DNA of 41,989 bases from Chloroflexota bacterium. Its GTDB lineage: Bacteria; Chloroflexota; Anaerolineae; VGOG01. Where the stretch lies: NCBI GenBank assembly GCA_016875995.1, contig VGOG01000009.1, positions 1-41,989 of the forward strand, in the 5' to 3' direction. Position numbers and translations under genes: made by a program. The notes under the pieces are model-generated. The model saw only the letters and a program-made list of their open reading frames with translations, was not told the origin of the DNA and did not search any database. Each line of letters opens with the position of its first letter. Positions within the stretch are counted from its first letter, which is position 1. Below, piece after piece: positions 35,461-39,648 of the stretch.

Positions 35461-38256
35461 CTAACCCCCCATCACGATCTCTGCCGCCCGCGCCGCCGCC
35501 CCGCTGGCCTGGGCCACCGACTCGGGGATGTCGGCCGGGCCCCGGCAGTATCCGCAGGCGAATACCCCCGGCCGGGTGGTGTCCGTCAGCGAGAAGGGAT
35601 CGGTCTTGATGAAATTGTACTCGTCCAGCTCGACCCCCAGCAGGGCGGCCAGGTCCTTCGCGCCGCGTCGTGGCATCAGGCTGATGGCCAGCACTGCCAG
35701 GTCCACCGTCTCGCTCCCCGCCTGGCCTGACGAGATGTCCTCGTACCAGATGATCGGGCTCTCGTTCTCGTCCTGAGTGATCTCCGCCACCCGGCTCCTG
35801 ACATAAGTCACGTTGTACTCGCGTTGGGCTCTGGCCACGTACTCCTGGAAGCCCTTGCCCGCTGCCCGCAAATCGGTGTAGAAAATCGTCGAACGCGCCT
35901 CCCGGTCGTGCTCGTTGGCCAGGATGGCCTCCTTGGTGGCGTGCATGCAACACACCGAGGAGCAGAAGTGGTTATGCTTCATATCCCTGGACCCCACACA
36001 CTGGATGAACCCCAGCCGCTTGGCCGGTTTCTTATCCGACAGCCGCCGCAGATGGCCGCCGGTGGGCCCTGAGGCGCTGATCATCCTCTCGTACTCCAGG
36101 GAGGTAATGACGTTCCTGTACTTCCCGTAACCGTACTGCCTAACCACAGAGGGGTCGAAGGGGTCGAAGCCGGTGGCCACGACGATGGCTCCCACCTGCA
36201 GACTGAGGGTCTGCTCGGCCATCTGGTGGTCAATGCACTTCGGGCCGCAGACCTCCATGCAGCGCCAGCACTCGGAGCAGATGCCGCAGCGCAGACAGCG
36301 TAGCGCCTCGGCGTGGGCTTGCTCCTCTGTTAGACCCAGTTCCACCTCGCGGAAGTCGCGGATACGTTCCTGGACGGGCGCGGTGGGCATCATCTCCCTG
36401 GGCCTCATGTTCACCTCGCCGGACTTGATTAGCTCCGCGATTTCCCTGTCCGTGGGATGAGCCACGGGCAGGGGTTGGAGCTCACGGGGGGTGAGGAGGG
36501 GTTCGCCACGCAAATAGCGGTCCATGGACAGCGCCGCTCGTCGCCCATCGGCGATGGCCTGGATGAGCGCATCCGGCCCGCGGGCCGCGTCCCCACCCGC
36601 GAATATACCCGGTCTGTTCGTCTCCAGCGTCTGCGGGTTGACCACGAAAGTGCCCCGTGGGGTGATTCCCAAGCCGTGATCCGCTTTCAGAAACGAAATC
36701 TCTGGAACCTGGGCCACGGCCGCGATCAGTGCGTCGGCCTCGATGTCGAACTCGGAGCCCTCGATGGGGATGGGACGACGGCGACCGCTCTCATCGGGCT
36801 CGCCCAGGCGCATGCGAATGCAGCGCACACTGCTGATATGGCCATTCTCGGAAATCACTTCAATCGGCTGAGTCAGCAGTTCTAATCTGACGCCCTCGCG
36901 CTCGGCGTCCTCGATCTCCCAGGCGTTCGCTGGCATCTCGGCCCGCGAGCGACGGTAAGCGATGATCACCTCCTCTGCCCCCAGGCGCAGGGCTGAGCGG
37001 GCGGCGTCAATAGCTGTGTTACCGCCACCGACGACAACCACCTTCTTGCCTAGCCTGATCTCCCCACCCAAGTTCACCGTCCTGAGGAAGGGGACGCCCT
37101 GGTACACACCCTCTGCATCCTCACCTGGGATATCGAGGTGCTGCGGCTCGTGCGCGCCGATGGCCAGGAAGATCGCTTCGTAGCCCTGGCCGAACAGGTT
37201 GTTGATGTCGTTGATGGGGGTACAGAGCTTCAACTCCACGCCGAGATCGAGGATGCTGTCAATCTCCCGCTGCAGCACGTGGCGGGGCAGGCGATAGGAG
37301 GGGATGCCCACCCGCATCATCCCGCCGGGCACGGGCAAGGCCTCAAAGATGGTCACCCGGTAGCCCATCCGCGCCAGGAAATGGGCGGCGCTCAGACCTG
37401 CCGGGCCGGCGCCGACGATGGCTACTCGCCTGGCATCCTGTGACGTAACGGTAGGCGGCAGGGCATCAGTGGGCTCGTCGCCTATCGCTGATCGCCTGTC
37501 GCTTTCAGCATACACCCAGTCTGCCACAAACCGCTTCAAAGAGCAAATAGCCACCGCCTCATCCAGCTCACCCCGGTTGCACTCTCCCTCACATGGATGG
37601 TTGCACACCCGCCCCACTGTAGCCGGAAAGGGGTTGTGCTGCTTGACCACCTCCAGTGCCTCCTCGTACCGTCCCTGGGCGATGAGAGCGATGTATCCCT
37701 GGGCGCTGGTCTCCGCCGGACAAGCGGCCTTACAGGGGGAAGTTCCCCGTTTGCTCACCAGATAAGCATTGGGGATCGCCTGCGCATAGGGGCGATAGAT
37801 CGCCCTCCACTCCGACAACCCCATGTTGAACTCGTCCGACAGTGTGATGGGACATACCTCCACGCAGTCGCCGCAAGCGGTGCATTTCTCTTCGTCCACG
37901 AACCTGGCGTGCTTGAGCACCTGCACCTTGAAATCGCCCACGGACCCTGTTATCTCTTTTATCTGGCTGTAGGTGTGGAGAGTGATATTGGGGTGCCGCG
38001 AGCACTCGGCCATCTTGGGAGCCAGGATGCATATGGAGCAGTCATTGGTGGGGAAGGTCTTGTCCAGTTGGGCCATCCGCCCGCCGATGCTGGGCGTCTT
38101 CTCCACGAGATGCACCTGGATCCCCATGTCGGCCAAATCCAGGGCGACCTGGATGCCGGCCACCCCTCCACCGATGACCAGCACGTCCCTACTCACTACC
38201 GACACCTCCCTCCCCCGAGTTCCCTCACCGAAGGTCTTTATCTCTTCCTCACTCAT
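35461..38256 (-). CDS. HdrA-like flavoprotein with an inserted GltD/NfnB-like module
   Basis: 931 residues. The ends are HdrA-like: FAD site IGGGVAGIQ, KTFPTNDCSICILAPKM and CTACGDCVEVCP (to ~135); and from ~675 FIQCVGSRDMKHNHFCSSVCC. Between them (about 165-660) is a glutamate synthase small-subunit-like module: CKAACPAETSAQGYIALI, VGRVCNHPCEGECNR, VAIVGAGPAGLSAAHFL (second FAD), VVVGGGNTAIDAARSAL (NAD(P)H) and CLRCGICSECWRCMEVC. This gives an NAD(P)H entry site within HdrA. It is the first gene of the cluster, about 35 bases after a good promoter. Confidence 0.92.
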   Translation of the reverse strand: MSEEEIKTFGEGTRGREVSVVSRDVLVIGGGVAGIQVALDLADMGIQVHLVEKTPSIGGRMAQLDKTFPTNDCSICILAPKMAECSRHPNITLHTYSQIKEITGSVGDFKVQVLKHARFVDEEKCTACGDCVEVCPITLSDEFNMGLSEWRAIYRPYAQAIPNAYLVSKRGTSPCKAACPAETSAQGYIALIAQGRYEEALEVVKQHNPFPATVGRVCNHPCEGECNRGELDEAVAICSLKRFVADWVYAESDRRSAIGDEPTDALPPTVTSQDARRVAIVGAGPAGLSAAHFLARMGYRVTIFEALPVPGGMMRVGIPSYRLPRHVLQREIDSILDLGVELKLCTPINDINNLFGQGYEAIFLAIGAHEPQHLDIPGEDAEGVYQGVPFLRTVNLGGEIRLGKKVVVVGGGNTAIDAARSALRLGAEEVIIAYRRSRAEMPANAWEIEDAEREGVRLELLTQPIEVISENGHISSVRCIRMRLGEPDESGRRRPIPIEGSEFDIEADALIAAVAQVPEISFLKADHGLGITPRGTFVVNPQTLETNRPGIFAGGDAARGPDALIQAIADGRRAALSMDRYLRGEPLLTPRELQPLPVAHPTDREIAELIKSGEVNMRPREMMPTAPVQERIRDFREVELGLTEEQAHAEALRCLRCGICSECWRCMEVCGPKCIDHQMAEQTLSLQVGAIVVATGFDPFDPSVVRQYGYGKYRNVITSLEYERMISASGPTGGHLRRLSDKKPAKRLGFIQCVGSRDMKHNHFCSSVCCMHATKEAILANEHDREARSTIFYTDLRAAGKGFQEYVARAQREYNVTYVRSRVAEITQDENESPIIWYEDISSGQAGSETVDLAVLAISLMPRRGAKDLAALLGVELDEYNFIKTDPFSLTDTTRPGVFACGYCRGPADIPESVAQASGAAARAAEIVMGG

Positions 38257-38377: not shown

Positions 38378-38535
38378 ATCATAGTATACTTGACCGATTG
38401 TAACTACTCAGGCTGTCATTGCGAGGAGGCGGTTTTTGCCGACGAAGCAATCTCCAATTCGCAAGTTGGGGATTGCTTCGCAAAAAACGCTCGCAATGAC
38501 AACAGAGGCTGAGTAGTTACGACCGATTTTGTTAA
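38378..38535 (-). promoter_or_regulatory. Second Hdr-type promoter, split by a MITE
   Basis: The minus-strand -10 TATGAT (plus 38378-38383) and -35 TTAACA (plus 38530-38535) would be 17 bases apart if the 121-bp element and one copy of its 8-bp target duplication were removed. The rebuilt site matches the intact promoter at 38298-38326 at about 24 of 30 positions, suggesting an old promoter duplication. Confidence 0.65.
38400..38520. mobile_element. 121-bp MITE with 8-bp target duplication
   Basis: Ends GTAACTACTCAG (38400-38411) and CTGAGTAGTTAC (38509-38520) are perfect inverted repeats. The inner arms GTCATTGCGAG and CTCGCAATGAC also pair, so the whole element folds. GACCGATT is present exactly at both outer edges (38392-38399, 38521-38528), a clear target-site duplication. 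TCATTGCGAG elements are a widespread class of non-autonomous repeats. Confidence 0.9.

Positions 38536-38568: not shown

Positions 38569-39648
<1,080 letters not shown>

What the first reader, a model, noticed from the sequence alone, without database searches (positions are those of the whole stretch)
38378..38535. MITE insertion that split a duplicated Hdr promoter
The 121-bp element is flanked by an exact GACCGATT duplication. Removing it and one duplicate rebuilds TTAACA-17-TATGAT, a second copy of the intact promoter TTGACA-17-TATTAT 80 bases closer to the gene. The insertion would have removed one of two tandem promoters and lowered, or re-timed, expression of the whole Hdr cluster.
Basis: partly seen in the sequence, partly recalled or inferred. 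Interest (0 to 1): 0.72.

Follow-up and report, generated by a model that had tools for sequence, protein, structure and literature searches.

The report
Mobile mini-element split a spare promoter
A 121-base non-coding mobile element, one of about 20 near-identical copies in this Chloroflexota genome, landed inside the farther of two look-alike promoter sequences in front of an electron-transfer gene cluster; the nearer, better promoter was left untouched, so this is a clean but fairly ordinary insertion whose effect on expression is unknown.

Summary
The element is 38400-38520 (121 bp), flanked by exact 8-bp duplications GACCGATT (38392-38399, 38521-38528). It has ~19 full-length near-identical copies in the same genome; all 24 distinct sites with both ends found (all sizes) carry an 8-bp target duplication (21 exact, 3 with one mismatch). 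Its ends (GTAACTACTCAG) and 8-bp duplication identify it as a MITE of the IS66 family, ISBst12 group: ISDge4 has nearly the same ends, and a complete IS66 element with matching ends exists in another genome of the class. Joining the flanks gives TTAACA-17-TATGAT on the minus strand, 80 bp upstream of TTGACA-17-TATTAT; the two 30-mers share 25/30 bases (0 of 2000 shuffles reach this) and the motif occurs nowhere else in the genome. So a duplicated promoter-like box really was split. The functional half is unproven: no genome examined keeps this hdr/gap junction, so no natural empty site was available, and no expression data exist. The intact box is the better promoter (11/12 plus TG) and keeps 65 bp of upstream DNA, so the likeliest effect is small. 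Only 1 of 24 family insertions breaks a promoter-like box: chance suffices. New member of a known kind.

The parts
38400..38520 (.). 121-bp MITE, IS66/ISBst12 type, ends GTAACTACTCAG
   Evidence: ~19 near-identical full-length copies in the genome; ends match ISDge4 and a complete IS66 element in L212
38392..38399 (.). target-site duplication GACCGATT, left
38521..38528 (.). target-site duplication GACCGATT, right
38530..38535 (-). orphaned -35 (TTAACA) of the split distal promoter-like box P2
38378..38383 (-). orphaned -10 (TATGAT) of P2
38298..38326 (-). intact proximal promoter-like box P1, TTGACA-17-TATTAT with TG before the -10
35461..38256 (-). first gene of the Hdr cluster, 931-aa HdrA-like/NAD(P)-binding flavoprotein
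38569..38597 (+). promoter-like box of the divergent gap gene, TTGCTC-17-TATAAT; the same box architecture and start region are seen in two other genera
38641..39648 (+). gap, type I glyceraldehyde-3-phosphate dehydrogenase

Best explanation
A non-autonomous IS66-family (ISBst12 group) mini-element transposed, recently on the evidence of copy identity, into the hdr/gap intergenic region and duplicated 8 bp of target. The target lay in the spacer of the distal of two near-identical sigma-70-type boxes, so its -35 and -10 are now 129 bp farther apart and that box can no longer work as one promoter. The proximal box is intact and presumably drives the Hdr genes; the loss of the distal box probably has a small or conditional effect. 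Shown: the element, its family resemblance, the duplication, the rebuilt box, its likeness to P1. Inferred: that both boxes were active promoters, the transposase that moved it, and the size of the effect.
For: 24 distinct sites, all with 8-bp duplications; 12 or more copies 100% identical over 121 bp. Ends match ISDge4, an experimentally mobile ISBst12-group element with an 8-bp direct repeat (PMC12898284); a 1560-bp IS66 element in genome G040 has ends GTAACTGCTCAGGC; the window's own genome has a single-ORF IS66 element with an 8-bp duplication (7/8) and related ends GTAAGCGTTCAGG/GTAACCGTTCAGG. P1/P2 likeness 25/30, 0 of 2000 shuffles, unique in the genome. After insertion no good partner hexamer is supplied: best is GTTACA (4/6) at 15 bp from the orphan -10.
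Against: No natural empty site was found; the hdr/gap neighbourhood is not kept in the relatives examined. No autonomous element with exactly these ends was found in the draft genome. The rebuilt box lacks TG and is 10/12, so it may have been weak. No transcription data.
Confidence: 0.8

Rival explanations
1. The two 30-bp repeats are paired operator sites (direct repeats of a regulator-binding site that overlap the promoter spacer) rather than two promoters; the insertion destroyed the distal operator, or moved half of it, and changed regulation of P1.
For: Likeness covers the spacer too (including AAAATC..TCAAGTAT) and stops at the box edges; neighbours are at background identity.
Against: Spacing and hexamers fit a sigma-70 promoter; the motif occurs nowhere else within 3 mismatches, so no regulon is visible. 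A plain local duplication explains the spacer as well.
Confidence: 0.15
2. The split distal box was never active; the insertion is neutral and the likeness to P1 is an old duplication without function.
For: 10/12 match without TG; P1 alone suffices as a promoter; 1 of 24 insertions hitting a box of at least 10/12 is close to chance (0.9% of random positions).
Against: The box is kept at 25/30 while its flanks are at background, which suggests past constraint, or a duplication of exactly this segment.
Confidence: 0.3
3. The element's main effect is on the gap side: placed about 40 bp upstream of the gap promoter it separates or insulates two divergent promoters.
For: Geometry: right duplication ends at 38528, gap -35 starts at 38569.
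Against: The gap box keeps its hexamers, and in G002 and G055 the DNA upstream of the gap box is unrelated, so no conserved upstream site appears to be lost.
Confidence: 0.1

Closest known systems
ISDge4, IS66 family, ISBst12 group (Deinococcus geothermalis; PMC12898284)
   Same: Ends GTGACTACTCAGCA / GTAACTGCTCAGCA against GTAACTACTCAGGC / GTAACTACTCAGCC here; 8-bp direct repeat
   Different: ISDge4 encodes a 449-aa transposase; the element here is 121 bp and encodes nothing
Correia elements (CREE) of Neisseria
   Same: Short palindromic non-autonomous elements with target duplication that land in regulatory regions, e.g. upstream of mtrCDE (PMC2649163, PMC10969869)
   Different: Different ends; CREE can carry promoters and IHF sites, whereas no sigma-70-like promoter reaching 9 of 12 lies inside this element and no strict IHF consensus was found in it
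Chunjie MITE of Geobacter uraniireducens (PMC10969869)
   Same: Multi-copy MITE, mostly intergenic, one copy disrupting an operon
   Different: Size 178-235 bp; relation by sequence not tested

Membership tests
MITE (miniature inverted-repeat transposable element) | short, non-coding, terminal inverted repeats | tested here: met
   121 bp, terminal inverted repeats GTAACTACTCAG, near-perfect hairpin
MITE (miniature inverted-repeat transposable element) | multiple copies with target-site duplications | tested here: met
   24 of 24 sites at 7/8 or better
IS66 family / ISBst12 group (as a derivative) | terminal repeats of the GTAAC..CTCAG type | tested here: met
   match to ISDge4 and to the complete IS66 element in L212
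IS66 family / ISBst12 group (as a derivative) | 8-bp target duplication | tested here: met
   same length for IS66 elements
IS66 family / ISBst12 group (as a derivative) | mobilised by an IS66 transposase | not testable with these tools
   an IS66 element with related ends is present in the genome, but cross-mobilisation needs an experiment
sigma-70-type tandem promoter | two hexamers with 16-18 bp spacing, in tandem, pointing to the same gene | tested here: met
   11/12 and 10/12, both 17 bp, same strand, in the joined-flank sequence
sigma-70-type tandem promoter | transcription start at each box | not testable with these tools
   no transcription data

The most novel reading that the evidence does not exclude
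IS66/ISBst12-type ends act as a general cap in this class of Chloroflexota: the same GTAACTRCTCAG ends enclose unrelated palindromic cores in different genomes (CATTGCGAG type here, CATGCTGAGCGAAGC type in G040), so MITEs of one transposase family arise repeatedly by taking over abundant small palindromes, and now and then remodel promoters as here.
Probability: 0.35. Interest if true: 0.45.

Novelty: new member of a known kind. Interest (0 to 1): 0.3.

Why it matters
It is a clean molecular record of a recent MITE insertion splitting one of two duplicated promoter-like boxes in an uncultured lineage, and it assigns an abundant 121-bp repeat to the poorly studied ISBst12 group of IS66. It does not by itself show a regulatory change.

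Tried and rejected
Empty site in relatives: the two other genomes of the family belong to other genera; in G002 and in G055 (another family of the class) gap follows ATP-synthase genes and a PII-like gene, not hdr. Hdr orthologues (at most 64% identity) have no matching tandem box upstream. Paralogous empty site for another copy (C56, in a repeat-like flank): no second copy of that flank. RNA family: only a chance-level match, far below its threshold. Element-borne promoter or terminator: none found inside the element. IHF site in the element: no strict consensus match. Full autonomous element with the exact ends in the own genome: not found; the single end hits that I checked were at contig ends or belonged to longer or diverged copies.

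Full report
Observation. The sequence between the HdrA-like gene (35461-38256, minus) and gap (38641-39648, plus) contains a 121-bp palindromic element at 38400-38520 flanked by GACCGATT on both sides. It folds into an almost complete hairpin (-63 kcal/mol, z -10.5).

Identity of the element. The window is one whole contig of a 4.29-Mb draft genome; GAPDH relatives and their record titles place it near Anaerolineae/Chloroflexota. The element has about 19 near-identical full-length copies there, plus shorter (112 bp) and longer (268-277 bp, with a second palindromic repeat inside) versions. Of 24 distinct sites with both ends, 21 have an exact 8-bp duplication and 3 have 7/8; there is no strong target consensus. 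Ends GTAACTACTCAG with an 8-bp duplication point to IS66, ISBst12 group: ISDge4 of that group has ends GTGACTACTCAGCA and GTAACTGCTCAGCA and an 8-bp direct repeat (PMC12898284). A complete single-ORF IS66 element with ends GTAACTGCTCAGGC is present in G040 of the same class (its flanks match at only 5/8). The own genome carries a 1597-bp IS66 element with related ends and a 7/8 duplication. Which transposase moved the element is inferred.

The split box. With the flanks joined and one duplicate kept, the minus strand reads TTAACA-17-TATGAT exactly 80 bp upstream of TTGACA-17-TATTAT. The 30-bp boxes share 25 positions, with neighbours at background; no dinucleotide shuffle out of 2000 comes near (best 14 against 20). 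The shared pattern occurs nowhere else in the genome within 3 mismatches, so this is best read as a local duplication and not a common promoter type. After insertion the orphan -35 has no -10 at 15-19 bp (at most 2/6) and the orphan -10 has only GTTACA (4/6) at 15 bp.

Is it more than an accident? Across the 24 sites of the family only this one breaks a box scoring 10/12 or more; random positions do so in about 0.9% of cases (27 of 3000). One in 24 is compatible with chance. The element itself carries no sigma-70-like promoter by the scan.

Function. P1 (38326-38298) is the better box (11/12, TG before the -10), lies about 40 bp from the start codon and keeps 65 bp of upstream DNA. I therefore expect a small or condition-dependent effect on the Hdr genes; this is inference. 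The gap box at 38569-38597 is also intact; the corresponding box in G002 is TTGCCT-17-TATAAT. In G002 and G055 gap has another upstream neighbour, so the hdr/gap pairing is not shared with these genomes and no natural empty site could be read.

Known context. MITEs in promoter regions are well documented, notably Correia elements near mtrCDE in Neisseria (PMC2649163, PMC10969869). This case is a new member of that kind, of IS66 type. The MITE review held here does not mention IS66; whether IS66-type MITEs have been described elsewhere was not settled.

Noticed in passing
L178 (G000:C161:7326-7602), L179 (C40:19634-19910), L175 (C258:646-913): Composite 268-277-bp versions of the MITE carry a second palindromic repeat (ACCCAGAAACTTCCACCTGTCATTGCGAG...) inside, still with 8-bp target duplications (two exact, one 7/8).
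   Followed up: partly
G000:C40, around 19634 (L179): A composite copy sits just downstream of TTGACA-17-TATATT and upstream of a likely gene start, so it may be transcribed as a 5' leader hairpin.
   Followed up: no
G040, about 22 sites; G049, 14 sites; G058, 5 sites: Other genomes of the class have their own repeats with GTAACTRCTCAG ends and different internal sequences.
   Followed up: partly
many genomes of the class: The CATTGCGAG...GAAGCAATC palindromic core is widespread in the class, often without the MITE ends.
   Followed up: no
G000:C26:22883-24479 (L176:884-2480): Single-ORF IS66 element inserted in a sensor-like gene, 7/8-bp target duplication, with another transposase-like ORF nearby.
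   Followed up: partly
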